Shown here one piece after another: positions 8,252-46,967 of a stretch of 64,000 nt of DNA (position 1 is its first letter; each line of letters opens with the position of its first letter). The translations under genes were made by a program, and so were the position numbers. Source of the DNA: Mermis nigrescens (lineage: Eukaryota; Nematoda; Enoplea; Mermithida; Mermithidae); contig JAVLUZ010000145.1 of NCBI GenBank assembly GCA_036768485.1, positions 15,772,304-15,836,303 on the forward strand, in the 5' to 3' direction. The notes under the pieces are model-generated. The model worked only from the letters and a program-made list of their open reading frames with translations, was not told the origin of the DNA and ran no database searches.

Positions 8252-9304
8252 TTATTCGATGGTAACTTCGAGCGAACATTCCCTAAGTGGCAATGGCAGA
8301 TGAATGGCCAAACCTTTCAACGCACTGACATTATTTACACTGTTTTTCAGACGTAATGGTTTTAGCTTAACAATATGCATCATCGTACTGGCTTGCTTAA
8401 TTAACAACTTTTCAAATGTGTTCAAACAGCTAATTTCTGACGGTACATCATCAATCCACATATTATTACTTCTGGAAAACAGAGGCAAAGCCCCATCCTT
8501 GAGATCTTTCAAACACCTTGCCTTACAAATGCGAATTGGCAGATCACAACACGTCTTCAAATCGTCTATACAATTAATACAATTAGAAAAATTATTGCCC
8601 GGCATATCTTCCCAATTATCAAAAACCATGCTTTCTTTACACCACATTCTACAAACATTGCAAACTTCACGCAGAAAGCCGTCAAGTTCAGCTAAAAACT
8701 TTTCGTACAGATAACCAAAATTTTTTATAACATACTCATCCAGCTCATTTACGCGTTTTCTATTTTCTTCAGAAATCTGAGGTTTTGCAACAGCTGGTAA
8801 ACTTTTCCCTTTTTTGCTTATGAGCTTGCAAAACATGCTATAGTTGCCCTCAAAACCAGCCCGTTCTGTTTGTAAAGTCCACCGCATACATTTCCTTAAA
8901 CAATATACGTATCGAAGAATATTACGAACTATAGGAAAGTGAGAAGACACGTTCCTTAACATTTTTAGAACATTGCTACACTTATCGCTTAAATCACATT
9001 CTAACTTCGATTCCGTAAAAGAACAAGGACATTTTTCCCAACAATGCAAAATACTTCGTATGTCATGAAATTTAAGGTTTTCTTTACACAAGGCTTTCAA
9101 CAAGCAATGCAATCTTAAAGCCCAATTAATTGGAAACTTACAATCATCATTACATGGTCTACGTTTCCCACGTTTCCACGAATTTGAATTTGATACAACT
9201 TCTTCATTATTAGAGCTTTCGATGTTCACATCAATAAACTCCTTTACTTTCATCTCTTTTGCACTAATTTTCCGCTTTTTCACTTGTGCATTACACAATG
9301 ACAT
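8252..9304 (-). pseudogene. Cys-rich protein with Helitron helicase N-terminal (DUF6570-like) region
   Basis: The 350-codon frame encodes a Lys-rich N-terminus and then a Cys-rich body with CNVCRMWC (about residue 217), NCINC and CCDLPIRICKARC. It ends with a stretch that has the layout of the region upstream of Rep in Helitron proteins (DUF6570-like): a Cys pair, L-x2-G-x-LP, N-x-W-x-DDVP, FEKLLI and LKGLAIHLPLPL. No Rep HUH motif or PIF1 helicase follows, so at most a fragment is left. The same frame continues upstream of 9304 for 16 codons to one in-frame TAG at 9353-9355, beyond which lies a Ser/Asp-rich repeat region. The homology call rests on motif spacing alone. Confidence 0.45.
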
Positions 9305-9352: not shown

Positions 9353-9958
9353 CTACGATATACTATTAACGCTCAAACCCGAATCAATAATCGAACTAGG
9401 TATATCTCCAGTAACACTAAACCCTGAATCAAATTTCGTACTAGTTATATCACTAATATCCGAATCAAAATTTGTACTACGTAAGTTTCCAACACTCATA
9501 CTAATACCCGAATTAAAGTTAGTACTAGGTATATCACTAAAACCCGAATCAAAATTTGTACTAGGTAAGTTTCCAAGACTACTTATACTAATACCCGAAT
9601 CAATGTTCATACTAGGTCTATCACTAAAACCCGAATCAAAAGTTGTTCTAGGTAAGTCTGCAGCACCAGTAATAACATATCTAGAATCAAAACTCGCACT
9701 ATTTCTAACATGATTAGCAGTAAAACTCGGATCAAAACACGTATTGCGTAAGTTACTAACACCGTTTACAGTAAAATCGGAATCGAAAAGTGTGACAGAA
9801 TCTAAACTCGTTCTACCTCCAAGATGCGAATTAAAACTGGAACTATTTCCAACATTAGCGACGTTAGAACCCGAATAGTTCAATGTATTACATTGTGTAC
9901 TACGAACCTTCCCAACACTAGCAATATCAATTGTCGACGAATACGCTTCGTATGACAA
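9353..9958 (-). pseudogene. Ser/Asp/Phe repeat region upstream of the Cys-rich protein
   Basis: This frame is in register with the downstream 350-codon frame and separated from it by a single TAG. It encodes a run of degenerate ~14-20 residue repeats around NFDSGFSDIPST, where the phase of the repeat is kept. That argues it was translated. At 9880-9970 it overlaps a different frame (9880-10317), so a frameshift as well as the stop would have to be explained. The apparent first codon is TTG rather than ATG. It may be a disordered linker of one broken protein, or an exon of a gene with unrecognised introns. Confidence 0.4.
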
Positions 9959-10317
9959 TAAAATTCTCCGGAAAACACGTCAGTATAAAATATATTCGAA
10001 TAATCAAAACCATACGGTTCGGAAAAAGCTGTATGATAAGCATTTTTCGAATAACATTCGCACAAAACTCTTGAATATTCATATAAATTAACATCGAATC
10101 TACCACAAAGATTTTCAATCCATTCCACAATATTGCGAATATATTTACCATACGAAAGCATAATTTTTATCACTGCAGACCTTATTTTCAAATAACGACA
10201 CATACGCTGCTCAATGGCAAGAATTCTTTCGCTTTTCCTTTGCTCAGAATCTTTAGGAAACATTTTATTCCGCACGGAAATCGCAAAACTCTGCATCGCA
10301 TCAGACTTCCAAGACAA
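9880..10317 (-). pseudogene. Charged helical N-terminal fragment of the same broken gene
   Basis: An open frame of about 145 codons rich in Arg, Lys, Tyr and Ile, with a motif SEQRKSERILAIEQRMCRY. It lies directly upstream of, and shifted against, the Ser/Asp repeat frame, so the three frames together look like one minus-strand coding unit with a frameshift and a stop. The first codon at 10315-10317 is TTG, and the next in-frame ATG comes seven codons later. I do not recognise the family. It could belong to the Helitron-like protein or to an unrelated captured gene. Confidence 0.35.
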
Positions 10318-32562: not shown

Positions 32563-32566
32563 TGCT
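32563..32566 (+). repeat. Target site duplication TGCT (left)
   Basis: Matches TGCT at 46968-46971. The reading frame of the interrupted integrase supports this as the duplicated target. Confidence 0.6.
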
Positions 32567-33638
32567 TGTGTAACTGGCGTAGAGTTGCGACGGTAGGCTG
32601 AACCTGCCTCTCGCAGTCTGCGATAGCCATTACATAGCCAATACTAGTAGCTGTCTATGACGGTGCACTGTGGGCTATGCCTTCGGTCTTCCCATTATTT
32701 TCCCAAATTTTCAACAATAAAAAACATTTAGATACTTGTCCGGTATCGTAGAGTTAAGTGTATGATAATAGTAATTGTTTAATGCATACCGCTCGTGTAA
32801 TCGATAATATTTGATCTGAGATAAAAGCTTATCAGTATTACGTTAATTTGATCGTTGTTTTATTTTACTGTAGGGGCCCTTGAGGCCAGTGTACTTAAGC
32901 TCGGATTGGAGTCTGGCGTTTTTTGGTTTTTCGTTTTGCCAGTCGTACGTGTACATATTCCGTACGTTTACGTTTTTCTTTTTGCTTGTTGTCCGGCTAC
33001 AGGCCGTGAATTATTCGTCGAATTAAAATTATAGAAAACCAACCCAGTGGTTTCTGGTTATACCGAGGGTTAGGTCGGCCACCATCCCTTCGTCGAGGAT
33101 TTCCACCCGTTTAGTGGACTGATAGGTAAATTCCGTATGATAGTTTATTTTATTCGAAAATCATATTTTATTTCTCAAGCCAAAAATTGATCAAAAATAT
33201 TATTTAATCTTTAGGGATGATTGATCAGCATAGAGCTCGTTGTTGTTGTTTTCATTGTTCAGCGTGCTACACAAATTAGGAACCAAAAACATTTCTGATC
33301 AGGTACTGATTGAAAACAAGTTAAATTACAACTTGAGCTTGAGATAGGTCAACTGACCTCCGCGGCAAATTCCGAGACTAGGTAGGTAGCCTTAGGTCTT
33401 AGGGCGTAGCTGCTGAGATCACCCGACCAGAAGCAGCCAGCAATATTAGGGCTGAGGGGATTGAAGCCGTAAGGTCTGTAAGGGTCCAAAGATCGAAAGC
33501 CATCCAGTGCCGCGCGATCGGGGCCAGCACTAAGCGCAGACTTAAGTACCTACGTACCTAGGTAAATCTCGCAGGTGAATGCTAGTGCCGCGTCTGTGTC
33601 GACTCTTGTAGATACAGATCGAACCCGCTACATTTACA
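32567..33638 (+). repeat. 5' LTR
   Basis: A 1,072-bp direct repeat of 45886-46967, starting TGTGTAAC and ending TTTACA. A 556-bp core (33016-33571 against 46340-46895) differs by one base as far as I can see by eye, but the first ~60 and last ~65 bp and two internal patches differ more. A possible poly(A) signal AATAAA lies near 32715 and an initiator-like TCAGTATT near 32833. Exact R/U5 limits cannot be set. Confidence 0.9.
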
Positions 33639-33639
33639 T

Positions 33640-33657
33640 TGGACGTTCCCTCCTTTA
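33640..33657 (+). promoter_or_regulatory. Putative primer binding site
   Basis: TGGACGTTCCCTCC begins one nucleotide after the 5' LTR, the expected position for a tRNA primer site and with the expected TGG. I cannot match it to a specific tRNA 3' end from memory. Confidence 0.4.
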
Positions 33658-34221
33658 GGCTGCTAGCTACAGCCGAGCTGATCAATCATCGTAAAATTAT
33701 TTTTCGATCCAAAAATCATCATTTTGGCCATCTAAAAATGTGTAACGTTTCGTTCACCTTTGTTGTTGTATCGACCGCGATCGTGGCAGTGCGCAATTTA
33801 AGTAAGCGTCCGTGGTAAAGATTTTGTGTATCGTGGTAAAGTCATCGTTATTTTTCTATTTCCGTCGAACTTTTATCGACGAAGGCAGCTCTCACGCTCG
33901 CATTTTTCTATAAACGTCGACCCACAGGCGACGATTCATCATTTTTCTCTCTTGACGACGAAATTCCGTCATTTAGGTGTTTACCTACCTGTTTTTCTAA
34001 CCACGTACACGTTCTTGCGCATTAGGCTTAGTCCTACCTGTTTTCGATCATTTCACGTCTGGTATATCTTACTTCACGTAAGGAAGTACTATTTACGTGG
34101 AAAAACCTGTTTTTCGGATCGACAAAGGCCAAATTCGAAACATTTATTTTGGGAAAAATTTCGACGTACTGAAATTTACTTTACCCAAGGTCACATTTTT
34201 CGACATTTTTGATATCTAAAA
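33658..34221 (+). promoter_or_regulatory. Retrotransposon 5' leader
   Basis: About 560 bp before gag. Candidate splice donors are TTTAA|GTAAGC (GT at 33802) and CTTCAC|GTAAGG (GT at 34078); either could join to the acceptor at 40925. Several short upstream ATGs are present. Confidence 0.4.
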
Positions 34222-36675
34222 ATGGCAGGAAAAAAGGTTTTGCGGACACCGCCCGCTAAATTGAAAAAACCTTCTACGCCACCTACTTCAACTCGCCAAT
34301 TACCTACCGCGCCTGTTGACTCTAATAGCGCGAGTAATTCTGCGAGTAATGACACAATTACGAAAGACGTAACTACTACGGCGAATAATGATAGATTACC
34401 CGCGTCACTAAATGCCGCGAGTAATACACAGTCCGATGATGAATTGTTATTGACAACTGTGCGATCGCGCATTAATCAAACTTCGATAACTAGATCGGAC
34501 CCTAACATTGATAATTCATCAAATCATACAATGATTGATAATACGACTACTCATAACACAGTGAATAATCCTGAAACCAGTTCGGAACGCGAAAATCCCG
34601 ATTCTGACGTCGAAAGTAATCATAGTCACAGCATAAATGCCGACCAAGAGCGTGCTAATGCTAATGCGACTAATGATCTTCTTTTGAAAGCTCTACAAGC
34701 TATTCATTTACAATTTTCGGATCTTTCTACGCGCTTTGAACAAGATAAAAAGGCAAATGCGGATGAAATGCGTAAACTGCGTTTGGAGCTAAGCACTATG
34801 CTTAAACCCCAACCAGTTCTGAATCGCATAGAGAGTAATCCATCTGAGCGCGTTAACCACTCAATCGATAGCGCAAATTTTTCTGAATTCAATGCACAAA
34901 CTGCGAATCGTGCGCAAAGTACGCATCGTGCATCCTCACTGTTGTCTACTAGCAACAGAGCGTCAAATTCACGCTCACCTTCGGAAACCGTTCCTGAAAA
35001 TATAACTCAAAGTTGTACAAGTCGCGCGCCTGTAATGTCTAATTTGTCACAGAATCCTTTAAACACGGGTTTGCAACCAGTGCAAAACTCGGGTTTTTCG
35101 GAAAATATACCTACGATTGTGCAGCCGTCGGTATCGATTTCGCAGACGTCGCGATCTCGACCTTCGCTGTCTTTAAATCGTAATGCGCCTTCTTTTGTAC
35201 CTAGCTCTTCTACTACGAACTCGCAGCAGCAATTAAATCCTCCTCCGCTGCAATATTTTCCACCTCAAGGCGAAAATTTACCTAGTAGCTATGTACCTAA
35301 TCCCATAAATGTGGAAATACCGCTTAATAATAATATTTTGCATTCTTCCAATATCGAAATGCAACCTGTTGAGATAAATCTATCTGGCATTAACACCGAA
35401 TCTGCACCTCCACCTGAATCGTCTAGTAGGAAAAAACATGTCAAATTCTCTGACGACAGCTCATCTAGTAGCTATGATCGCCCGCGCAGTCGTCGCTCGC
35501 GTCGCAAGGGTCGATCGCGCAGACGACGTCATCGGCATAGTTCAGGTTCTTCATCTGAAAGCTCTCGTGGTGACTCGCGTCTTGCTGATTCCTTGAATCG
35601 CGGACCATTTTTGCAGCAAATGCAATTTGCAATTGCTAATAAAAAATTTTTTGATGGCGATAAATCGGATATGAAAGCATATTTTGCAGAATTTGAATCG
35701 CTTGCCAATACCTATGATATTGACAAAGCTGATCGTTTAAAATTCGCTACTGGATTTCTTGATCCTTATGTTTTGCGTTTATACCGTTCGTTACCTGCTG
35801 ACATTCAACAATCGTATTCAAAAACGAAACAAGCGCTAATAGCCGAATTTTGTCCAATGGACACCGGTGCGCTCTTTAATCGTTTTTTGTCACACAAACA
35901 GCAGCCTAACGAATCGGTTAAAGCTTATTATCTCTCGCTTCGCGAAGAATTAATTAAGTCGGATCCTTACCTTGAAATTGATTCGCCACATTTCAATAAT
36001 TTAATGCGACATCAGCTAAAAGAAGGTTTATTACCACACATTTCGAAAGAGGCATATCACAAAAAACCTAGAGCATCATTAGCTGAATTTTTGGATAATG
36101 CGCTAAGCGCTGAATTTGCTAACAAAGAATTTGAGGATAAAAAGGCAGTAACGCCTTATGTATCGGTAACAGCTGCTCCAGTAGGCAGCGCAGTACCTAA
36201 AGATACTCCTCGCGTATCTAACCAAACTGATTCAAATCGCTCACGTTATAAAACGTTTCATCGCTCATCGCGTGCTGAGAAACCAGAAAGTTCTTCTCGT
36301 AAATATTGTACCTTTTGCAAGCGCATAGGTCACATTTATGAGGAATGTTTCACGCGTCAAAGGCAAGAAGTAACTAATAATACTAATCAGAACAATCAAG
36401 CAGAGCGAAATAATAATTCTATGGCTCGCAATCGCAGCCAATCGCGTTCTTTTTCGCGACAAAATTGTTCGCCATCGCGTTCGAATTCGCAAAATAGGCA
36501 GCGATCTCAATCACAATATCGTAACCCTAGTCAACATCGCTCATTTAACTATGCGAATAATGATAATCGCTTTGAATCAAAGCAATCACGATCGAATTTT
36601 CGGCAAAATCGTAATGATTATTACCAAAATTCGCGTGCTAATTATCAAAATTCCGCGTTACGACAATCGCTATAA
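34222..36675 (+). CDS. gag: Gag polyprotein
   Basis: An 817-aa structural protein of the retrotransposon particle. Residues 1-140 are Ser/Thr/Asn-rich and disordered. A charged helical stretch follows at about 150-200. An Arg/Ser-rich basic cluster lies near 415-455. A helical capsid-like region typical of retrotransposon Gag (FFDGDKSDMKAYFAEFESL onward) spans about 472-645. One CCHC zinc knuckle, C-x2-C-x4-H-x4-C, uses C696, C699, H704 and C709. The C-terminus is Arg/Ser/Asn/Gln-rich and should bind RNA. It ends TAA at 36673-36675 inside the pol frame. Pol is in the +1 frame relative to gag, and the two overlap by at least 125 nt. Confidence 0.93.
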   Translation: MAGKKVLRTPPAKLKKPSTPPTSTRQLPTAPVDSNSASNSASNDTITKDVTTTANNDRLPASLNAASNTQSDDELLLTTVRSRINQTSITRSDPNIDNSSNHTMIDNTTTHNTVNNPETSSERENPDSDVESNHSHSINADQERANANATNDLLLKALQAIHLQFSDLSTRFEQDKKANADEMRKLRLELSTMLKPQPVLNRIESNPSERVNHSIDSANFSEFNAQTANRAQSTHRASSLLSTSNRASNSRSPSETVPENITQSCTSRAPVMSNLSQNPLNTGLQPVQNSGFSENIPTIVQPSVSISQTSRSRPSLSLNRNAPSFVPSSSTTNSQQQLNPPPLQYFPPQGENLPSSYVPNPINVEIPLNNNILHSSNIEMQPVEINLSGINTESAPPPESSSRKKHVKFSDDSSSSSYDRPRSRRSRRKGRSRRRRHRHSSGSSSESSRGDSRLADSLNRGPFLQQMQFAIANKKFFDGDKSDMKAYFAEFESLANTYDIDKADRLKFATGFLDPYVLRLYRSLPADIQQSYSKTKQALIAEFCPMDTGALFNRFLSHKQQPNESVKAYYLSLREELIKSDPYLEIDSPHFNNLMRHQLKEGLLPHISKEAYHKKPRASLAEFLDNALSAEFANKEFEDKKAVTPYVSVTAAPVGSAVPKDTPRVSNQTDSNRSRYKTFHRSSRAEKPESSSRKYCTFCKRIGHIYEECFTRQRQEVTNNTNQNNQAERNNNSMARNRSQSRSFSRQNCSPSRSNSQNRQRSQSQYRNPSQHRSFNYANNDNRFESKQSRSNFRQNRNDYYQNSRANYQNSALRQSL

Positions 36676-39600
36676 TAATCAATCGCGCCAAAATACACCT
36701 TTCGTGCAATTTCCAAATGAACAACGTGGGACATACTATAACTCGAACTATCGCAACGACAATAATTCTAATCGCCCTTATGTTACATATACCGCAGATA
36801 ACCAGCCCACCATGAATGCGCCCCCACCGCAGCCAACCCCTACATCTCCTCATGATGTAAACACGGTTACTGCGAAAGGGCCAGAATCTAGCGCGCGTCC
36901 TAATTTATTCGCGTCGCAAGAATTTCTCGAAGAGTACGAACGTTTACAACGTCGTCTTGCAACTTACGAGAAAATAAATCTACCTCCGTCTAAGATCTTA
37001 GATCCTAATATTCCTATTGTAAGTCACGCTGGAACTAATTTACCCACTATTCTCGTCAAAGTTCATGGCGTTGAGGTACCTGCTCTCATAGATACAGGTT
37101 CACAGGTCACCATGATGACCACATCTGCATTCTTGCGTCTTGGTTTTAATTTACCACCTAAACAAGTTTCGCAAGTTGTGCATGGTGTAGGCAAAATTAC
37201 TGCAGTCGTTCGCTATAAAGTAAATATGACTTTAACCATTGCGGAACAATCTATTACTACCTCAGTTGCTATAATTGATCATTTGCCGGAAGACATGCTC
37301 TTAGGATATGATTTTTGCGAATCCGCACTCATGTGGGTTAATCCTATTGAGCGTTGTGCTTTTATAAACGGCATTAAGGTTAATTTACTCTCATCTCATG
37401 AAAAATTGCAATTTCGCACGAAACCCAACGCAACCACCTCTGGTGTTGTGTGTGTACATGTTTCGTTGCCCGAGCCTGTTATCATACAACCTAGGCATGA
37501 ATTAATTACACCTGGCTATATAAGTCATGGTTCTTGCAATTTTGATTTCGCACTATTCGAACCAAATCCTGATTTTATGGAGAAAACATCACTTTTTGTT
37601 GCTCCATCTATAGTCGATGCTTCACAACCTTTAATACCTGTTCGCGTCTGTAACATCTCTAAAGCGCCAATTCGCATTGACTCTGGTGACATAATAGGTT
37701 CTTTAACCACTGATGCCGAGGTTGTGTCACATGTTTCATCTTTGGATGATAGGACACCAGAACTTTTCGCATCAATAAATAAAGCTTTAAACGGCTCCGC
37801 CGTTGATTCTAGACAACAGCAACAAATTCGTGAATTATGTCTAAAATACGACTCAATTTTTGCACTAAAAAACGAACCTCTCGGTCGTACCCCCTTGATG
37901 AAACATCATATCGATACAGGGGATAATCCACCCGTTGTGGGAAAAACTTATCGTGTCGAACATTCTAGAAGGGAATCTATGCAGAAAATTATAAATGAAA
38001 TGCTTGCGGATAAAATTATTCGACCTACAACTAGCCCATGGGCAAGTCCATTATTTCTCATTGGAAAAAAGGACGGTTCCCTAAGGCCAGTCGTCGATTA
38101 TCGACGGTTAAATGACATCACTAAAACGCAAGTTTATCCTCTTCCGCAACTAGATGATTATTTTGATACCTTAGGCAATGCTGCATATTTTAGCACACTA
38201 GACTTGAAATCTGGATACTGGCAGATCCCACTCGATAATAAATCTCGCGAAAAAACAGCATTTATATGTCCTGTTGGTCATTATGAATTCGAAGTTTTAC
38301 CTTTTGGGTTAAAGAATGCGCCCGCAGATTTTCAAAGACTAATGGAGCTTGTGCTCGCAGGTCTAAATTGGAAATCTTGTCTCGTTTACATCGATGACAT
38401 AATTATCTTTTCACGCACTTTCAAAGAACATTTAAAAGATCTCGAAAATGTCTTTATTGCTCTTAAAAAGGCAAACTTACGTGTAAAGCCTGATAAGTGC
38501 CATCTTGCGCATGCAGAGGTAAAATTTCTTGGCCATAGCATAAGTGCAATGGGCATCGCTCCTGACATGTCCAAAGTCGCGGATTTAATCTCGTTTCCCG
38601 TACCAAAAACCGTAAAATCCTTGCAGAAATTCCTTGGTTTAGTCCAATGGTTTAAGAAATTCGTTAAAGATCTCGCTAAAATTGCTAAACCGCTATTCCA
38701 TCTTCTGCGTAAAGATGTCGAATTTTGCTGGAAGGCTGAACACCAAACCGCCTTTGAGCTTCTGAAGAAAGCATTTACGTCCCCACCTATTTTACAATTA
38801 CCGAAATTCGATGATGAGCACCAATTTATCTTAACAACTGACGCAAGTAACTATGCGTTAGGTGCTATTTTGACACAAAAACACTTACCATCAAAAAATC
38901 GTTTTATTCTTAGCTACGCTAGTCGCGTACTAAATTCTGCCAAATGTAATTATGCTACTTCGGAAAAAGAAGCGTTAGCGGTAGTGTGGGCCATCAAGCA
39001 TTATCGACACTATCTTTACGGTAAAAAGTTCATTGTCGAAACTGATCATCAAGCGTTAACCTGGCTAGTAAACGTAAAAGACCCATCGAGTCGATTACGC
39101 CGTTGGGGTCTCAAATTACAGGAATACGAATATGATATCGTTTACGTTCCTGGTGCATATAATTGCGCAGCTGATCTTCTCTCACGTCATCCTAAATATG
39201 ATCATGCAGAACGAAAATATAAAGTCGAGCGCAAAAATATCGTTAACATCGCAAATTTAGAATCAGAAGATTCTGAGTCAGATGATGAATCGGTTCCACC
39301 TGACCGATCGCGCGATAACGCGCCTACTGCACCAATTAATCATCCAAATGCGCAAAATAATGTTCCTACTGCGCAAACCGATCCTACTAATTCTAAACCA
39401 CCTACATTTCGCGAACGCTTGTTACTTACCGATGCCGAAAAAGCTGAAATGCTAACACCTGCGCGTTTACTCGCTGAGCAACGTGCAGATGACGAATTGC
39501 ATAAAATTCGCATCGCATTGAACGACTTAACAACGAAAAAATATCGTGACGAATTTTTTCTCGTAAACGATGTACTTTTTCGTCGTTTCCAACCTAAGCG

Positions 39601-41020
39601 CTCACCAACTGTCGTTCATCAAATAGTCATACCCAAATCTTTGCGTCGCTTCATATTAACGGAATTTCATGACTCTATTTTCGGAGCTCATTTTTCATCG
39701 CGCAAAATCTTGCCCGCCATTCAAATGCGTTATTGGTGGCCGCGCATGGAAAATGATGTGATCGCGTGGTGTCGGAATTGTGATGTGTGCTTACAACGTA
39801 AGGTCGCATTAAATTCCACATCCGTTCCGATGCAACCAATCGAAGTATCCGCACCCTTTGAACTCATTGCGTGCGATTGTTTGCATATGCCGCGATCCCC
39901 CTCCGGAAATGACCAAATTGTAGTTTTTATGGATTATTTCACAAAATACGTGGAAGCTTTTGCTGTTTCTGATATCAAAGCAACAACTATCGCAAATTTA
40001 TTATTACGAGAAATTATACCACGTTATGGAGTCCCCAAGAAATTTTTAACAGATCAGGGGTCAAATTTTACATCTACCCTTATTTCGGAAGTCTGTAAAT
40101 TATTAAACGTTCAAAAAATATTTACAACCCCATATCACCCCCAGTGTGATGGGTTGGTGGAACGTTATAATCGAACTTTGATTGATGGTTTGTCGAAGCT
40201 GAGTGCGCGTTCCCAGTATGATTGGGAGCAATTTTTACCTTTTGCATTATTTGCATACCGCGCGACTCCGCAATCATCGACTAATATATCTCCTTTCGAA
40301 ATGCTTTATGGTCGCGAACCAGCATTTCCTCTTGACACTTTACTAATAAATGACTTCGTGATAAATCCGAATTTACCTTCCGTTGCGGAAAAATATGTCA
40401 TTGATTTAAAGCTGACTTTACAAGACTTGCATGAAATCGCATCTCAAAATCTAACGCAAGCGCGTAAGCAGCAGAAATCACAATATGACAAGTCCGTAAC
40501 GCAAACAAATTTTTCTCTTTCGGATATAGTCTATCTTAATAATACCTCAGTCATTCAACCTGAAATAGGTAAATTATCACCCAAGCGTGTGGGTCCATAC
40601 CGAATTATTGACTTACCTACGCCTGAAACTGCGAAAATCGCATATGTCTATAACCCTCTTATCGTTCATCACGTTCATAGGAATAGACTTCTGCCTGAGC
40701 CTAAACTACCTTATTCTGACTTAATTGTGGAAAAACACGCGTACGTCCCTGGCGATTTTGTGTTGGTAAAATTACCACATCGCCCTCTTGCCCCGGCAGT
40801 TGTCATAAGTTTTGAGGATTTACCGGGCAGGGAACAAAAAGCTAAGGACTGCGCGCCTATACGTTTATTAAATGGCTCTAAAACAGCACATGCCGTACCA
40901 TTATCTAATGTTTTTCCTTTTGCAGACCCATGGCTGCAGAAGGCACCCCAAGCAAAGAGGCATTGCTGGAGGCAGCTGGTCGCCGATGCAAATTCGAAGG
41001 GCGTGATCCCGCGTCCTTAG
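36551..41020 (+). CDS. pol: Pol polyprotein: protease, RT, RNase H, integrase, PWWP-like tail
   Basis: Up to 1,489 aa, probably expressed by +1 frameshift from gag, since the first ~40 residues overlap gag and the real fusion point lies before 36675. Protease active site D181-T-G. RT carries YIDD at 613-616. RNase H has its first Asp in TDAS at 764. Integrase has a zinc domain (H1040, H1047, CDVC) and the catalytic triad D1109, D1168, E1204 with the standard 35-residue D-E spacing. A segment at about 1397-1459 (GDFVLVKLPHRPLAPAVVIS, then a strand ending VFPFAD) has the layout of a PWWP domain, which binds chromatin in host proteins. The last 91 nt overlap the exonuclease gene. Confidence 0.95.
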   Translation: MRIMIIALNQSNHDRIFGKIVMIITKIRVLIIKIPRYDNRYNNQSRQNTPFVQFPNEQRGTYYNSNYRNDNNSNRPYVTYTADNQPTMNAPPPQPTPTSPHDVNTVTAKGPESSARPNLFASQEFLEEYERLQRRLATYEKINLPPSKILDPNIPIVSHAGTNLPTILVKVHGVEVPALIDTGSQVTMMTTSAFLRLGFNLPPKQVSQVVHGVGKITAVVRYKVNMTLTIAEQSITTSVAIIDHLPEDMLLGYDFCESALMWVNPIERCAFINGIKVNLLSSHEKLQFRTKPNATTSGVVCVHVSLPEPVIIQPRHELITPGYISHGSCNFDFALFEPNPDFMEKTSLFVAPSIVDASQPLIPVRVCNISKAPIRIDSGDIIGSLTTDAEVVSHVSSLDDRTPELFASINKALNGSAVDSRQQQQIRELCLKYDSIFALKNEPLGRTPLMKHHIDTGDNPPVVGKTYRVEHSRRESMQKIINEMLADKIIRPTTSPWASPLFLIGKKDGSLRPVVDYRRLNDITKTQVYPLPQLDDYFDTLGNAAYFSTLDLKSGYWQIPLDNKSREKTAFICPVGHYEFEVLPFGLKNAPADFQRLMELVLAGLNWKSCLVYIDDIIIFSRTFKEHLKDLENVFIALKKANLRVKPDKCHLAHAEVKFLGHSISAMGIAPDMSKVADLISFPVPKTVKSLQKFLGLVQWFKKFVKDLAKIAKPLFHLLRKDVEFCWKAEHQTAFELLKKAFTSPPILQLPKFDDEHQFILTTDASNYALGAILTQKHLPSKNRFILSYASRVLNSAKCNYATSEKEALAVVWAIKHYRHYLYGKKFIVETDHQALTWLVNVKDPSSRLRRWGLKLQEYEYDIVYVPGAYNCAADLLSRHPKYDHAERKYKVERKNIVNIANLESEDSESDDESVPPDRSRDNAPTAPINHPNAQNNVPTAQTDPTNSKPPTFRERLLLTDAEKAEMLTPARLLAEQRADDELHKIRIALNDLTTKKYRDEFFLVNDVLFRRFQPKRSPTVVHQIVIPKSLRRFILTEFHDSIFGAHFSSRKILPAIQMRYWWPRMENDVIAWCRNCDVCLQRKVALNSTSVPMQPIEVSAPFELIACDCLHMPRSPSGNDQIVVFMDYFTKYVEAFAVSDIKATTIANLLLREIIPRYGVPKKFLTDQGSNFTSTLISEVCKLLNVQKIFTTPYHPQCDGLVERYNRTLIDGLSKLSARSQYDWEQFLPFALFAYRATPQSSTNISPFEMLYGREPAFPLDTLLINDFVINPNLPSVAEKYVIDLKLTLQDLHEIASQNLTQARKQQKSQYDKSVTQTNFSLSDIVYLNNTSVIQPEIGKLSPKRVGPYRIIDLPTPETAKIAYVYNPLIVHHVHRNRLLPEPKLPYSDLIVEKHAYVPGDFVLVKLPHRPLAPAVVISFEDLPGREQKAKDCAPIRLLNGSKTAHAVPLSNVFPFADPWLQKAPQAKRHCWRQLVADANSKGVIPRP
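40739..40929 (+). other. PWWP-like region at the integrase C-terminus
   Basis: Pol residues 1397-1459. The order is PGD-[hydrophobic]-VLVKLPHRPLAPAVV, a variable loop, I-x-LLNGSKTAHAVP, then LSNVFPF. PWWP domains share PGD-x-V-x-AK, a P-x-x-P element, a strand with F-x-G-[ST]-x-[ET]-[AT] and a closing [DL]-x-PF. The aromatic cage residues are only partly evident. The call is by pattern, without a profile search. Confidence 0.5.
40910..40925 (+). promoter_or_regulatory. Strong 3' splice site before the exonuclease ATG
   Basis: TGTTTTTCCTTTTGCAG has a long pyrimidine tract and CAG at 40923-40925. The exonuclease ATG follows after ACCC. It lies inside pol codons. A spliced RNA from the leader to this site would express the exonuclease as errantiviruses express env. 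Confidence 0.6.
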
Positions 41021-42453
41021 ATGAGTTTCGTTCGGCGTTGACCAGTATGGCTTTAGAGCGGGGTTTGGTTGTACCAGACCCGCTGCCACAAAACGACGAT
41101 AGTCGTGTTAGCGGTTTACAAGCATTCACTGCTAGATGGGTTAAGCACAAAGCAGCACATAAAATTAAAAATCATACTAAGCGTATAAACGATCAACAGC
41201 TCTGGTGGGAGAATAGATTTCGTAGATTTCCTTTGGTAACCCCTCGCGTACCAAGGAACAGGCCTATGCCTACGGTCATAGTCTCCGACGACCAGAAGTC
41301 GTTTGCCGCCATTTTGGCGTTAACTCAACCATCAAATTTGACTAATGGCACACTATTTTTAGGCTACGATTCTGAATTTGTTAATGACAGGAAAGGCAGA
41401 CACTATAAGACCTGGGACTTGCGTTTTCAGCAATTATGTCCCACCTACCAGGACCTCCATGGCCCATTCGTACGCTACGTCCAAGTTGCGAGCGCGAACG
41501 GTCATGTGTTCTGCTGGGACCTGGCGAAGTTCCCGCAACCTCCGTTCGGGCTTCACCAGTTGCTCGAAACACGTTTGCCAAATGTATATATGGTTTGTTA
41601 CGATCCTACGCAAGATCGACTTGCGTATTTTCACGTATACGGTCCAACTTTTGAGGAAATTTTGGCAATCCCAGATGCAGAAATTCGCAATCAACTGCAC
41701 TGGAAGGATCCGTTCATCGCTAATTTTATCGATATTCAGCCATTAGCGAGAGAATTTACTCGTCGTTTTCGCATTACAGCGCGTTCACACACACTGAAGC
41801 GCTTGGCTGAGTTCCTATTTGACATGTATCTTGACCCGAACGCGCCTGATAACTTCGGACAGGCGTGGAGCTTACCTTTAACTCGGGACATGCAGAATTA
41901 TTTAGTGATGGACGCCCTTATAACTATCGATGTTTTTATATTGATAGAAGGGACATCGCAAAATAATCGCATTACTGACGATAGAAAGCCTATGTCAGTC
42001 TCATTTGTAGGCGATGAATTGCACATTAAGGCCACTGGCCCAAAAGCCAGAGTGCGTATACCATTGTCGACTAGCAAACCACCGCAAGGACAGTCGACCA
42101 GCACAGCTGCTGAAGCTGAAGTAGAAGTTGACTCGAATGGCGAAGAATTAATTAGAGTTGAGGACTTCTATGGTCCGGCTCCGCAACTTCCAGCGGCCAT
42201 AGCAGCAGCCACCACCGTTGCCTCAGTAACGGAAGCGTTGGCTCACACTAATGTCTTTGACAATCCTGACCTACAAGTTCAGGGTTCGCAGGCCGTTGCC
42301 GACTCAGTTTCGGGCCCGGCTCATGCACCTGATACCGAACCAAAATCTAAACCAACCAGTTCGAGTACACCTGCATCTGCGTTTTCTTCGCAAACCGATA
42401 TTCCATATGATTCGCCAATGATCGATGTAGAACCGATCTCCACTGAACGATGA
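40930..42453 (+). CDS. DEDDy-type 3'-5' exonuclease (retrotransposon ORF3)
   Basis: A 507-aa protein. Residues 1-130 are a basic, unassigned N-terminus. Residues about 140-340 form a DnaQ-like exonuclease: motif I LGYDSEF (D147, E149), motif II around YDPTQDRL (D229), then a helix SHTLKRLAEFLF, and motif III WSLPLTRDMQNYLVMDAL (Y324, D328). The tyrosine and the WxxPLTxxxxxYxxxD context place it in the DEDDy class near WRN, EXD2 and Rrp6. All five catalytic residues are present, so activity on single-stranded or 3' ends of DNA or RNA is likely. The C-terminus (340-507) is Ala/Pro/Ser/Glu-rich and disordered. The start at 40930 is an ATG in good context (ACCCATGG) just after a splice site. Possible roles are trimming of cDNA or primer ends, or defence against host RNA. 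Confidence 0.88.
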   Translation: MAAEGTPSKEALLEAAGRRCKFEGRDPASLDEFRSALTSMALERGLVVPDPLPQNDDSRVSGLQAFTARWVKHKAAHKIKNHTKRINDQQLWWENRFRRFPLVTPRVPRNRPMPTVIVSDDQKSFAAILALTQPSNLTNGTLFLGYDSEFVNDRKGRHYKTWDLRFQQLCPTYQDLHGPFVRYVQVASANGHVFCWDLAKFPQPPFGLHQLLETRLPNVYMVCYDPTQDRLAYFHVYGPTFEEILAIPDAEIRNQLHWKDPFIANFIDIQPLAREFTRRFRITARSHTLKRLAEFLFDMYLDPNAPDNFGQAWSLPLTRDMQNYLVMDALITIDVFILIEGTSQNNRITDDRKPMSVSFVGDELHIKATGPKARVRIPLSTSKPPQGQSTSTAAEAEVEVDSNGEELIRVEDFYGPAPQLPAAIAAATTVASVTEALAHTNVFDNPDLQVQGSQAVADSVSGPAHAPDTEPKSKPTSSSTPASAFSSQTDIPYDSPMIDVEPISTER

Positions 42454-42475
42454 TTTATCTCCTAAGCGTTTAGTC

Positions 42476-44101
42476 ATGGCGTTATCCGACACCGAGGCGG
42501 AAAGACAAGCTAATTTGTCACCATCGCGTTCTACACGCGTGGCATTGGCCAGAAAAGGGGCTGTTATCGTTTCGCAACCGATTGTCTCACAATCGCTTGC
42601 GGCGGACCAACAAGCGCCCTTGGGCATCAGTTCGCTCGGACCTTTGCCGACTTCACAGCCGGGTCGGGTAGAGCGTGACTCTGAGCCCGATGTGATCATG
42701 ACTGAGATTATAGGTTTTCCGCCGGTGACACAACAAATTTTACCCGCGCACGAAGTACCACAAGTAGCATTGTATACGCAAGTCGCGACTCATTCCGCGC
42801 CACAAGGCGTGTCGGCACCAGATGCTCGTTTTATGGCTCCTATGGCCATGACGGGTGTGTCGAGTACTGTGGCGACTATTCACCCACAGGCAATTCAAAG
42901 TCAGTCATCAAATAGGGAAGTCGCCATACCCCCAATGATGCAAGCTATTCGCGATCGTATGGCCGCGAATGAAAGCGCGAGAGTGCAAAGCCGCTCGCGC
43001 TACGTTCAGCATTTTTTCACCATGATGGAAAATATGACGCGAGAACCTCCGTGCACTGTCGCACCAGTTGTATTGCACGAGTTACATGACAGTTTGGGTG
43101 AGGTTGAAGGAACGCGTGTATATGATCAGCTGGTTGAAGCTGCACAAGTGTACTTCGACCGAGTGTATGCAATCCATTTGCAGCACGCGACTTCAACTGA
43201 TTCCCCGTCGCGTCCATTAGTGTGGCCCTTGACCGCACAGTCTTTGGCTGATGTGGATCGTCCACCCGCACCTCGATTTATCAGCAAATTGAGTGTGTTT
43301 AACCGATTGTTTTATCCCGATCAATATTTTGTGCGCATACGTTTCTTTATTACAACGGGAATGATGTTGTACGAAGTGCCGTTAGAGTATTTGGTGGTGC
43401 ACCCGCACCTTGATGCACCGACTGAAGTGTCTGATGGTGTTGCTCATCAGGTTCGCCCGGAGTTATATCCACACAGGATGTCTCCAGCGCCAGATCACAT
43501 GGCACCCATCTTAATATCGGCACGCCAGATGGTCGATATTTTCGATACTTTCCGAGAATTTCAAGCATTATATGATTCGGAGTATCGACACATGACGGTC
43601 TTTTCTTCCATAGACGTCATGCGCGCTACAGCGCTTTTGGAATTCCTGGACAGGAAGTTCCACTTCTTTGCGTACGCCTACGGAAATCCCGGAATAGGCT
43701 GGCGCATGGTGGAGCAGTTACGTCGCATGTTGCGCGTAGCGTTCCTTGGCGAATCTTATACACCTTCGCCAAGTGAGGCTTTTCCGGAATTCCCGGATTT
43801 AACAGCACGAATTGAAAGTCCTCATGTTTTACATAACATGATTCGGCAAATTCGGCTGGCAACCGATCCGCCGCTCGAAGTTCCGGCTCAGTTCGATCGT
43901 TTTAGAGGTCAACAAAAATCGGTCTTTTTCCTAAAACATCGAATTCAAGGCGAATTAGAAAAAATTCGCAGACAAAGGCGACAGGCATCCTCGCAGGACC
44001 CTAGTGGATCCGTAGCGAGCCTTGAATTGCCAGAAGTCGACCTTTCCTTGGAAGCACAAATTGAGATGCGTAGAACACGCATGACGATCGAGAAACGCTG
44101 A
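42476..44101 (+). CDS. Unknown retrotransposon protein (ORF4)
   Basis: A 541-aa protein in no family I recognise. Residues 1-150 are Pro/Gln/Ser-rich and disordered; about 155-460 look folded and mainly helical with many aromatic residues (HFFTMMENM, FFAYAYGNPGIGW); the last 60 are charged and basic (KIRRQRRQ). No signal peptide, transmembrane segment, zinc knuckle or catalytic motif is visible, so it is not an obvious env, protease or nuclease. The ATG lies 22 nt after the exonuclease stop, with a possible acceptor GCGTTTAG at 42466-42473. The frame is also open back to 42431, so it could be joined to the exonuclease by a +1 shift. Its stop is followed by a basic tail in the +1 frame. Confidence 0.75.
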   Translation: MALSDTEAERQANLSPSRSTRVALARKGAVIVSQPIVSQSLAADQQAPLGISSLGPLPTSQPGRVERDSEPDVIMTEIIGFPPVTQQILPAHEVPQVALYTQVATHSAPQGVSAPDARFMAPMAMTGVSSTVATIHPQAIQSQSSNREVAIPPMMQAIRDRMAANESARVQSRSRYVQHFFTMMENMTREPPCTVAPVVLHELHDSLGEVEGTRVYDQLVEAAQVYFDRVYAIHLQHATSTDSPSRPLVWPLTAQSLADVDRPPAPRFISKLSVFNRLFYPDQYFVRIRFFITTGMMLYEVPLEYLVVHPHLDAPTEVSDGVAHQVRPELYPHRMSPAPDHMAPILISARQMVDIFDTFREFQALYDSEYRHMTVFSSIDVMRATALLEFLDRKFHFFAYAYGNPGIGWRMVEQLRRMLRVAFLGESYTPSPSEAFPEFPDLTARIESPHVLHNMIRQIRLATDPPLEVPAQFDRFRGQQKSVFFLKHRIQGELEKIRRQRRQASSQDPSGSVASLELPEVDLSLEAQIEMRRTRMTIEKR

Positions 44102-44321
44102 TCGTGAGAATTTGGCTACGGAAATGCCACGGCGTGTGACGAAATTACGCGCCGCCGGTTCTCTTACTGAAGCTTCCGAGGTCCGTCATATGCCAGAAGA
44201 CGAACATAAGGCGAAATTGAACCGATTTTATGACACAAAGTCCGAACACGCTTTGCGTCGACTGAAAAACTTGGAAAAGCAACGAGTCAGAAGACTCGTT
44301 CAAGCTGAAAGTTGCAGCTAA
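44085..44321 (+). CDS. Basic tail segment 1, +1 frame of ORF4
   Basis: Open from 44085, so it overlaps the end of ORF4 by 17 nt, and has no ATG near its start (the first start-like codon is TTG at 44112). It encodes Arg/Lys-rich helical sequence (RRLKNLEKQRVRRLVQ). It reads as a continuation of ORF4 after a +1 shift between 44085 and 44101, either programmed or caused by an indel. Confidence 0.55.
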   Translation, partial: RSRNADRENLATEMPRRVTKLRAAGSLTEASEVRHMPEDEHKAKLNRFYDTKSEHALRRLKNLEKQRVRRLVQAESCS

Positions 44322-45084
44322 ATTAAAAGCGCGTTTAGGCCCAAAGGGATCGAGGCGGCAAGAACCGCAATCATCCCGGCAACGCTATGCTGCAACACAC
44401 CACCGATCACAATCGCAAGCACAACAGCAAACGCAAGTAAAACCGCATATACAGCAATATACAAGACCGCAAACCCAACCGCGGCAACAACAGCATTTTA
44501 CGGAATCGCGTGAGCGTTCCGAGGCGTATTCACAGGCCGATGCTGGTCATCTGTCGCGCTCGCGACAGCAGCAGCCTTACGAATATCGCCGCCAACCACA
44601 GTCGAACCGCGGAACTCATCAGGACCGGTCACAATCCCGACAACGGCAGCAATGGGATCAATCGTATCGCTCTCCGTTGGAACAAAGTCAACCAGCCACC
44701 GGGGATTATCAGCCACAACCTCGACCGGGTCCACTTTTGCCAAAACCGTGGCCTGTTAATCAACAACAACAGCGTCCACGCGAACCTTCTCGCCAACGAA
44801 CTTACGGTTTTACGCCGGAGCAATTATTTACTCCGACGCCGCCCATACCGCGTCGTTATGCTGACGACTACGAGGACGATGACGATTTTGAGGACGACGA
44901 TCGACCCGTCGATCCACACCAACGCTTACGCCAACACATGTACGGGCGTAGGCAATCGCCATATCAATATCGTGAGCGTTCGAATACGCGTCGCGAACCG
45001 GAATCCGATCAGGAATATTTTCAACGACAACGACGTCGCGGAAAATCGTATGGCTCGAAGGCCAATTACCGCGATCAATATTAA
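44266..45084 (+). CDS. Gln/Arg-rich tail segment 2, +1 frame of segment 1
   Basis: Open for about 272 codons from 44266, with no ATG until 44677. Composition is Gln/Arg/Ser/Tyr-rich, with an acidic patch DDYEDDDDFEDDD near the middle and a basic end. It resembles nucleic-acid-binding tails such as the gag C-terminus. It overlaps segment 1 by 56 nt and again sits one frame ahead. I infer it is the C-terminus of the ORF4 protein rather than a separate gene. Confidence 0.55.
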   Translation, partial: KTWKSNESEDSFKLKVAAKLKARLGPKGSRRQEPQSSRQRYAATHHRSQSQAQQQTQVKPHIQQYTRPQTQPRQQQHFTESRERSEAYSQADAGHLSRSRQQQPYEYRRQPQSNRGTHQDRSQSRQRQQWDQSYRSPLEQSQPATGDYQPQPRPGPLLPKPWPVNQQQQRPREPSRQRTYGFTPEQLFTPTPPIPRRYADDYEDDDDFEDDDRPVDPHQRLRQHMYGRRQSPYQYRERSNTRREPESDQEYFQRQRRRGKSYGSKANYRDQY

Positions 45085-45887: not shown

Positions 45888-46967
45888 TGTAACTGCGAGA
45901 GTTACACGGTAGGCGAACCTGCCTTAGCAGTTCGCGATAGCCATTACATAGCCAATACTAGTAGCTGTCTATGACGGTGCACTGTGGGCTATGCCTTCGG
46001 TCTTCCCATTATTTTCCCAAATTTTCAACAATAAAAAACATTTAGATACTTGTCCGGTATCGTAGAGTTAAGTGTATGATAATAGTAATTGTTTAATGCA
46101 TACCGCTTACGTGTAATCGAGAACATTCGATCTGAGATAAAAGTCATTTCAGTATTATGTTTAATTTGATCGTTGTTTTATTTTACTGTAGGGGCCCTTG
46201 AGGCCAGTGTACTTAAGCTCGTATTGGAGTCTGGCTTTTGGTTTTTGCGTTTTCGTTTTTGCCAGTCGTACGTGTACATATTCCGTACGTTTACGTTTTT
46301 CTTTTTGCTTGTTGTCCCGGCTACAGGCCGTGTATTCTTCGTCGAATTAAAATTATAGAAAACCAACCCAGTGGTTTCTGGTTATACCGAGGGTTAGGTC
46401 GGCCACCATCCCTTCGTCGAGGATTTCCACCCGTTTAGTGGACTGATAGGTAAATTCCGTATGATAGTTTATTTTATTCGAAAATCATATTTTATTTCTC
46501 AAGCCAAAAATTGATCAAAAATATTATTTAATCTTTAGGGATGATTGATCAGCATAGAGCTCGTTGTTGTTGTTTTCATTGTTCAGCGTGCTACACAAAT
46601 TAGGAACCAAAAACATTTCTGATCAGGTACTGATTGAAAACAAGTTAAATTACAACTTGAGCTTGAGATAGGTCAACTGACCTCCGCGGCAAATTCCGAG
46701 ACTAGGTAGGTAGCCTTAGGTCTTAGGGCGTAGCTGCTGAGATCACCCGACCAGAAGCAGCCAGCAATATTAGGGCTGAGGGGATCGAAGCCGTAAGGTC
46801 TGTAAGGGTCCAAAGATCGAAAGCCATCCAGTGCCGCGCGATCGGGGCCAGCACTAAGCGCAGACTTAAGTACCTACGTACCTAGGTAAATCTCGAAGGC
46901 AAATGTTAGTACGGTTCGCATCTGTGACGATTCTTTAGACCCAGATCAAAAACCGGCTACATTTACA
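45886..46967 (+). repeat. 3' LTR
   Basis: 1,082 bp, paired with 32567-33638. It starts AGTGTAAC where the 5' LTR has TGTGTAAC, and its first bases form a perfect hairpin TGTAACT-GCGAG-AGTTACA that the 5' LTR has lost. It ends TTTACA followed by the duplicated TGCT. Confidence 0.9.

What the first reader, a model, noticed from the sequence alone, without database searches (positions are those of the whole stretch)
40930..42453. Ty3/gypsy retrotransposon carrying a complete DEDDy exonuclease gene
Seen: an intact 507-aa ORF after pol with D147/E149, D229, Y324 and D328 in the order and spacing of DEDDy exonucleases, including the WSLPLTRD...YLVMD motif III context. Known: as I recall, DEDDy exonuclease ORF3s were reported in bdelloid rotifer LTR and Penelope-like elements; standard insect gypsy elements carry env or nothing here. 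Inference: an independent or shared capture of a host WRN/EXD2/Rrp6-like gene, perhaps used to process cDNA ends or counter host RNA pathways.
Basis: partly seen in the sequence, partly recalled or inferred. Interest (0 to 1): 0.9.

Follow-up and report, generated by a model that had tools for sequence, protein, structure and literature searches.

The report
Nematode retrotransposon carrying an RNA-trimming exonuclease
A self-copying genetic element, in what is very probably the genome of an insect-parasitic roundworm, carries an extra gene predicted to make a nuclease that would chew nucleic acids from their 3' ends; the same kind of gene sits in several other element families of this genome, and it would give the element a tool to process its own RNA or to blunt the worm's RNA-based defences.

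Summary
The 507-aa ORF and its DEDDy residues (D147, E149, D229, Y324, D328) are there, in a 14.4-kb Ty3/gypsy element (LTRs 32569-33638, 45888-46967). But 507 aa is not the complete gene. Of the 85 best-scoring copies in the same genome, 24 have an open frame of 1,373 codons or more; those read hold one protein of about 1,384 aa, joining the window's 507-aa ORF, its 541-aa ORF and a basic, glutamine-rich tail. The window copy is broken near 42450, 44100 and 44310. The host is a nematode, not an insect: telomeres are TTAGGC, and assembly size fits Mermis nigrescens. The exonuclease call is sound. The window ORF alone misses Pfam's cut-off, but it is homologous to ORFs of other gypsy families here that pass it, and the joint profile finds only DEDD exonucleases in the PDB, WRN first. 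The domain is under purifying selection (dN/dS 0.014 around motifs I-II). A strong predicted 3' splice site precedes its ATG. DEDDy ORF3s are known from bdelloid rotifer LTR elements; my paper searches found none from nematodes. Best reading: an accessory protein, likely from a spliced RNA, predicted to trim RNA 3' ends, perhaps against silencing. Substrate and role are untested.

The parts
32569..33638 (+). 5' LTR (TGTAAC...TTTACA)
   Evidence: pairwise alignment with the 3' LTR, 1037 of 1066 aligned bases identical plus 22 gap positions, differences mostly towards both ends; a TGCT at 32563-32566 and again after 46967 may be a 4-bp target duplication, ambiguous
33639..33656 (+). putative primer-binding site (starts TGG directly after the LTR; length nominal)
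   Evidence: position and TGG start read from sequence; tRNA not identified
34222..36675 (+). gag ORF, 817 aa
   Evidence: PF03732 Retrotrans_gag E=0.0062, below the curated cut-off
36551..41020 (+). pol ORF: protease, RT, RNase H, integrase
   Evidence: RVT_1 5.8e-36, RT_RNaseH 4.6e-35, H2C2 4.7e-19, rve 1.4e-11, Asp_protease_2 8.5e-12; a weak PWWP-like end (0.063)
40911..40925 (+). predicted 3' splice site (TTTTTCCTTTTGCAG), ending 4 nt before the ORF3 ATG
   Evidence: highest score of 488 AG sites in 34222-45084 with a simple recalled weight matrix (9.9; next 7.8); present in 39 of 40 sequences, one T shorter in the other
34078..34079 (+). candidate 5' splice site in the leader (another at 33802)
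   Evidence: weak scores 2.7 and 2.3; not decisive
40930..42453 (+). ORF3 as read in this copy, 507 aa: basic N-terminal part, DEDDy exonuclease domain about residues 120-345, low-complexity linker
41350..41964 (+). DEDDy exonuclease domain core (motif I D147/E149, motif II D229, motif III Y324/D328)
   Evidence: profile comparison with relatives 97.1%, E=5.8e-11; PDB profile search
42476..44101 (+). ORF4 of this copy, 541 aa: in other copies the continuation of the ORF3 reading frame; no known domain
   Evidence: (L007); no Pfam or NCBIfam hit, no protein-database relative
44103..45084 (+). basic, glutamine-rich tail, in two further frames in this copy; C-terminus of the long ORF3 in other copies
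   Evidence: sequence
45888..46967 (+). 3' LTR

Best explanation
A 14.4-kb Ty3/gypsy retrotransposon, very probably of the mermithid nematode Mermis nigrescens, carries after gag and pol a third gene whose first part is a predicted DEDDy 3'-5' exonuclease, which is likely made from a spliced RNA and would trim RNA 3' ends, most likely to blunt the worm's small-RNA silencing. Shown: position, copy number, the long frame of about 1,384 aa in other copies, catalytic residues kept, purifying selection, homology to DEDD exonucleases. Inferred: catalysis, splicing, RNA as substrate (the protein ends in a basic, glutamine-rich tail, which suggests RNA binding), and the role against silencing. Rough weights: anatomy and exonuclease family 0.95; catalytically active 0.75; RNA rather than DNA substrate 0.6; anti-silencing rather than processing of the element's own ends 0.4.
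For: Family: the window domain (with one B copy) against a profile of four other gypsy-borne ORFs gives 97.1%, E=5.8e-11, with motifs I, II and III aligned; those four pass PF01612's cut-off of 23.6 (L064 40.4, L067 35.3, L072 30.9, and a 305-aa frame of L071 30.9 bits); the joint six-sequence profile hits 17 PDB sequences at E<=0.01, all named as enzymes of the DEDD kind or carrying such a domain (partly recalled), WRN first at 1.8e-11. Function kept: catalytic residues 40/40, D229 39/40; A/B dN/dS 0.122-0.128 over the whole frame and 0.013-0.021 for residues 141-258 in three A/B pairs (Fisher against the rest for one pair p=5e-4); 82 of the 85 best-scoring copies lack a stop in ORF3, a set chosen by score and so biased to intact ones. 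Separate expression: best acceptor of 488 directly before the ATG. Accessory behaviour: in two B copies where both were measured, the adjoining 1.5 kb of pol is 96-97% identical to the window but ORF3 only 87.5-88.7%, as expected for a module exchanged by recombination or evolving faster. Recurrence: 9 of 12 loci fetched with PF01612 have integrase just upstream (these nine stand for about five distinct sequences), giving with the window three gypsy lineages. Analogy: ERI-1, a 3'-5' exonuclease, belongs to the endogenous siRNA machinery of C. elegans (PMC3213143, passages); arenavirus ExoN takes part in suppressing host innate signalling (PMC7968707, passages).
Against: Nothing shows catalysis, splicing or an anti-silencing effect. 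The window sequence alone gives no Pfam hit at full length and only E=0.14-0.21 when cut to pieces. Both structure models are unusable (pLDDT 37.5 and 39.4). Over residues 141-345 the selection contrast with the rest of ORF3 is not significant (p=0.098). Related loci L070 and L071 have altered motif I residues, so catalysis may not matter everywhere. Donor sites for the splice are weak. The greater divergence of ORF3 may come from one recombination event and says nothing of silencing; and one search listed only the 40 best pol matches, so B copies with more divergent pol would be missed. In bdelloids the extra ORFs showed no significant departure from neutrality (the table covers env-like and GDSL-like ORFs) and no unambiguous correlation of transcription with copy number (PMC5408684).
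Confidence: 0.4

Rival explanations
1. The exonuclease serves the element's own replication: it trims the 3' ends of element RNA or of cDNA (flaps, untemplated additions) so that ends integrate cleanly.
For: DEDDy enzymes process RNA 3' ends or single-stranded DNA, and Rodriguez et al. propose processing of retrotransposon RNA 3' ends (PMC5408684); nearest solved relative is WRN, which the same paper lists among enzymes that may act on single-stranded DNA; strong conservation of motifs I-II.
Against: The domain lies outside Gag-Pol and likely needs its own RNA; in two B copies ORF3 is more diverged than pol beside it, whereas a replication enzyme should track pol.
Confidence: 0.3
2. A catalytically dead or dispensable nucleic-acid-binding domain, like Maelstrom or EXD1, that tethers RNA to a structural protein.
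For: L070 and L071 have altered motif I; Maelstrom and EXD1 are inactive DEDD derivatives that bind RNA (PMC5408684); basic tail.
Against: In the window family the catalytic residues stay in 40/40 (D229 39/40) sequences although A and B differ at dS 0.45-0.48.
Confidence: 0.15
3. Proofreading: the exonuclease removes mismatches made by the element's reverse transcriptase in trans.
For: The element is long (14.4 kb), and ExoN in nidoviruses goes with large genomes (PMC7968707); the same paper places phage DEDDy domains among DNA proofreaders.
Against: Not fused to pol, and diverging from it in the two copies measured; I recall no retroelement that proofreads.
Confidence: 0.07
4. An env-like protein that merely took over an exonuclease domain.
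For: Position after pol and predicted spliced expression, as for env of Drosophila gypsy (recalled).
Against: No obvious transmembrane segment: highest 19-residue Kyte-Doolittle mean is 1.64 (L036) and 1.69 (L052), and it falls inside exonuclease motif III.
Confidence: 0.03

Closest known systems
DEDDy ORF3 of bdelloid rotifer LTR elements Juno and Vesta, and of Athena Penelope-like elements (Rodriguez et al. 2017, PMC5408684)
   Same: DEDDy-type exonuclease ORF downstream of pol in LTR elements, in more than one lineage of one genome; modular exchange inferred in both
   Different: Nematode host; the exonuclease is the first part of a protein of about 1,384 aa; no dUTPase domain found in pol, which the paper reports for Juno and Vesta; catalytic set DEDD plus Y in the window family, whereas the paper says DEDD is changed to DEED in rotifers. 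Common ancestry not testable here
WRN exonuclease domain (PDB 2fbt, 2e6l)
   Same: best profile match (E=1.8e-11); the stretch through motif II, and motif III, align
   Different: encoded by a mobile element and joined to an unrelated long protein instead of a helicase; motif I was not part of the aligned stretches
Other gypsy families of the same genome (L064, L067, L072; L070, L071)
   Same: integrase followed by a DEDDy ORF
   Different: open frames of 489-499 aa in L064, L067 and L072; L071, and by eye L070, have a PWWP domain at the end of pol and altered motif I

Membership tests
Ty3/gypsy LTR retrotransposon | two LTRs flanking gag and pol | tested here: met
Ty3/gypsy LTR retrotransposon | domain order PR-RT-RH-IN | tested here: met
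   no RT tree with reference elements was made
DEDDy 3'-5' exonuclease (PF01612) | curated Pfam score on this protein | tested here: not met
   no hit at full length; 11.8-12.4 bits on pieces, cut-off 23.6
DEDDy 3'-5' exonuclease (PF01612) | homology to proteins that pass the curated score | tested here: met
   BLASTP 2.9e-10 to L067 in a set of eight; hhalign 97.1%, 5.8e-11; L064/L067/L072/L071 30.9-40.4 bits
DEDDy 3'-5' exonuclease (PF01612) | DxE, D and YxxxD in order and kept across copies | tested here: met
   40/40, D229 39/40
DEDDy 3'-5' exonuclease (PF01612) | DnaQ-like fold | tested here: inconclusive
   single-sequence model pLDDT 37.5
DEDDy 3'-5' exonuclease (PF01612) | exonuclease activity | not testable with these tools
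   needs an assay
Bdelloid Juno/Vesta/Athena DEDDy ORF3 group | ORF3 downstream of pol encoding a DEDDy domain | tested here: met
Bdelloid Juno/Vesta/Athena DEDDy ORF3 group | closer in sequence to those ORF3s than to cellular enzymes | not testable with these tools
   no rotifer sequences at hand
Errantivirus-like env gene | transmembrane anchor | tested here: not met
   hydropathy only, two copies
Host: Mermis nigrescens | assembly size and scaffold number; nematode telomere | tested here: met
   523,963,438 bases in 860 contigs against 524,220,005 in 867 (PMC10989877); TTAGGC. Not proven: no sequence of that species was compared

The most novel reading that the evidence does not exclude
The long ORF3 protein is a retroelement-encoded editing and defence-stripping enzyme: a true 3'-5' exonuclease that several gypsy lineages of one nematode share and swap as a module, either removing reverse-transcription errors of unusually long elements or eroding the 3' ends of the small RNAs that silence them. 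That would be a retrotransposon with its own proofreader or its own RNAi suppressor.
Probability: 0.3. Interest if true: 0.88.

Novelty: new variant of a known kind. Interest (0 to 1): 0.6.

Why it matters
DEDDy exonuclease ORFs in LTR elements had been described, as far as my searches show, only from bdelloid rotifers. Finding them in three gypsy lineages of a nematode, with the domain under strong constraint and joined to a long accessory protein, suggests a recurrent need, and nematodes offer RNAi genetics in which the two main ideas (end processing or suppression of silencing) can be told apart.

Tried and rejected
Pfam and NCBIfam on the window's ORF3 and ORF4: no hit at full length. Protein-database searches with ORF3, with the related L064 ORF and with ORF4 each scored about 8,000 candidates by shared words and found nothing at E<=0.1, 0.01 and 0.01; relatives without shared words would be missed. 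IMG/VR and GTDB contigs: no confirmed relative (61). Two AlphaFold jobs without alignment: too poor, so no fold search was made. Rfam at gathering thresholds on the window: nothing. The part of L036's long ORF3 after residue 509 against window gag and pol and the plus-strand frames of five other loci: no match at E<=1. A piece of L036's long ORF3 after the exonuclease gave no Pfam hit and the whole L036 protein no NCBIfam hit. Rejected: chance motif match; insect host; env; a complete 507-aa gene. Paper searches that turned up no nematode case, judged from listings only unless a paper is named elsewhere: (no paper at all).
Full report
The element. Two LTRs (32569-33638, 45888-46967) flank a 14.4-kb unit; 1037 of 1066 aligned LTR bases agree, with 22 gap positions, and the differences lie mostly towards both ends while long middle stretches are identical. 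Gag (817 aa) and pol (protease, RT, RNase H, integrase) are open. The reported ORF overlaps the end of pol.

The gene is longer than reported. A six-frame search of the window's own genome (524 Mb, 860 contigs) with the 507-aa protein found 2,617 first-look candidates and scored the best 85: a subfamily A of 32 at 96-100% identity, 52 at 88-91% (subfamily B) and one partial match at 97%. Of these 85, 82 have no stop within the match and 24 have an open frame of 1,373 codons or more (counted from the table; the set is chosen by score and so leans to intact copies). Of the 24 copies other than the window that I fetched over the whole stretch (20 A, 4 B; the B ones picked for long frames), 12 read as one protein of 1,383-1,391 aa that contains the window's ORF3, its ORF4 and the basic tail. 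None of the 39 other copies ends at 507 aa. The window copy is broken near 42450, 44100 and 44310. The published assembly of the likely host is built on nanopore long reads and its last step was polishing with mRNA-seq (PMC10989877, abstract and passages), so some breaks may be assembly errors.

It is a DEDDy exonuclease. Alone, the window ORF has no Pfam hit (E=0.14-0.21 on pieces). A PF01612 search of the genome listed 90 places, 46 of them over the cut-off, and 23 of those 46 lie in frames of 444-547 codons, several with equal scores as in repeated copies. Of the 12 loci fetched, nine have integrase just upstream (L064, L065, L067-L073); L064/L065 and L072/L073 read alike and L067-L069 nearly so, so these are about five distinct sequences. 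The other three, L062, L063 and L066, showed none. The window domain aligns to these ORFs by BLASTP (2.9e-10 to L067, in a set of eight) and by profile (97.1%, E=5.8e-11, window plus one B copy against four other ORFs). The six-sequence profile finds 17 PDB sequences at E<=0.01: WRN, Egalitarian, apicoplast polymerase, NrnC, a MUT-7 homologue, EXD2 and DNA polymerase I. A profile without the window finds eight at E<=0.001, WRN first. That Egalitarian and the polymerases carry DEDD domains is recalled.

Selection. In three A/B pairs the long frame has dN/dS 0.122-0.128 and residues 141-258 have 0.013-0.021; in a B/B pair 0.136 and 0.034, and in an A/A pair 0.110 and zero. For L036/L052, residues 141-258 have 2 replacement and 28 silent changes, different from the rest of the frame (p=5e-4), while 141-345 as a whole is not (p=0.098) (counts rounded). 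Catalytic residues are kept in 40 of 40 (D229 39 of 40) sequences. Against this, the single copies of related families, L070 and L071, have N for D and K for E in motif I.

Mosaic evolution. Among the 40 best matches to 1.5 kb of adjoining pol DNA, eight belong to B copies by their coordinates, at 96-97% identity. Two of these eight were also fetched: their ORF3 is 88.7% (L055) and 87.5% (L061) identical to the window. All nine B copies measured lie at 87.2-89.2% in ORF3, and the 30 other A copies at 96.4-99.7%. Since one search shows only the best matches, B copies with more divergent pol may exist. In these two at least, ORF3 is older than, or evolves faster than, the pol beside it; exchange by recombination is the simpler reading. 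Along the long frame A/B identity varies from 78 to 93% per 60 codons in L036/L052 and rises to 94-100% in the last four blocks of L036/L054, a further sign of mosaicism. Within subfamily A the last quarter differs more than the rest in L036/L037.

Lineages. Exonuclease and integrase trees both give three groups: window family; L070/L071; L064/L067/L072 (plus L076 for the exonuclease, where L070 was only partly available). They do not conflict, which fits one old acquisition, but with three unrooted groups they cannot prove it.

Expression. TTTTTCCTTTTGCAG ends 4 nt before the ORF3 ATG and is the best-scoring acceptor of 488 AG sites with a simple matrix. It is present in 39 of 40 sequences, one base shorter in the other. 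The 100 nt before the ATG are identical to the window in 8 of 10 other copies (9 B and one 96% A copy), weak evidence by itself. Leader donors are weak. Splicing is therefore predicted, not shown.

Host. (TTAGG)8 and (TTAGGG)6 are absent; (TTAGGC)6 has 4,772 overlapping matches. TTAGGC as the nematode telomere is recalled. Assembly size and contig number fit Mermis nigrescens, whose paper reports 83.98% repeats and does not use the word gypsy in its main text.

Function. The anatomy argues for an accessory protein: outside Gag-Pol, likely with its own RNA, no obvious transmembrane segment, basic glutamine-rich tail, signs of module exchange, kept catalytic residues. I therefore favour RNA 3'-end trimming, and among its uses the blunting of small-RNA silencing, with the element's own end processing close behind. 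The authors of the rotifer study considered RNA end processing and a silencing role, and say catalytic activity is yet to be demonstrated (PMC5408684).

Novelty. DEDDy ORF3s in LTR elements are known. New here, as far as the listed paper searches show, are the nematode host, the spread over three gypsy lineages of one nematode genome, the joining to a long ORF3 protein, and the selection evidence.

Noticed in passing
L071:3-974 and L070:342-1022; window pol C-terminus about 40751-40927: A PWWP chromatin-reader domain at the end of pol in L071 (E=9e-14), read by eye in L070, and a weak PWWP-like end in the window pol (0.063; 27-residue match to L070 at 4e-4 in a set of two); perhaps an integration-targeting module like the chromodomain of chromoviruses.
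   Followed up: partly
window 32569-33638 and 45888-46967: LTR differences lie mostly towards both ends while long middle stretches are identical, as after gene conversion or recombination between elements.
   Followed up: no
window 8252-9304 (-): 350-aa ORF with DUF6570 (E=1.3e-10), a domain I recall from Helitron-type transposons; further ORFs at 9353-10317 (-) had no Pfam hit but may belong to it.
   Followed up: no
L070 and L071: DEDDy ORFs of related gypsy families with altered motif I residues (N for D; K for E), possibly inactive.
   Followed up: partly
L062 (G000:C728:216624-221285): PF01612 match spread over several pieces as in an intron-containing host gene; by eye Rrp6-like.
   Followed up: no
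G000, one search list: 90 PF01612 places, 46 over the cut-off, many in long frames with equal scores, suggest more DEDDy-carrying element families than the few read here.
   Followed up: partly
window 42998-44098: The middle part of the long ORF3 (about residues 691-1060) is under purifying selection (dN/dS 0.08-0.10 in five pairs), but a protein-database search with the window's ORF4 found no relative.
   Followed up: partly
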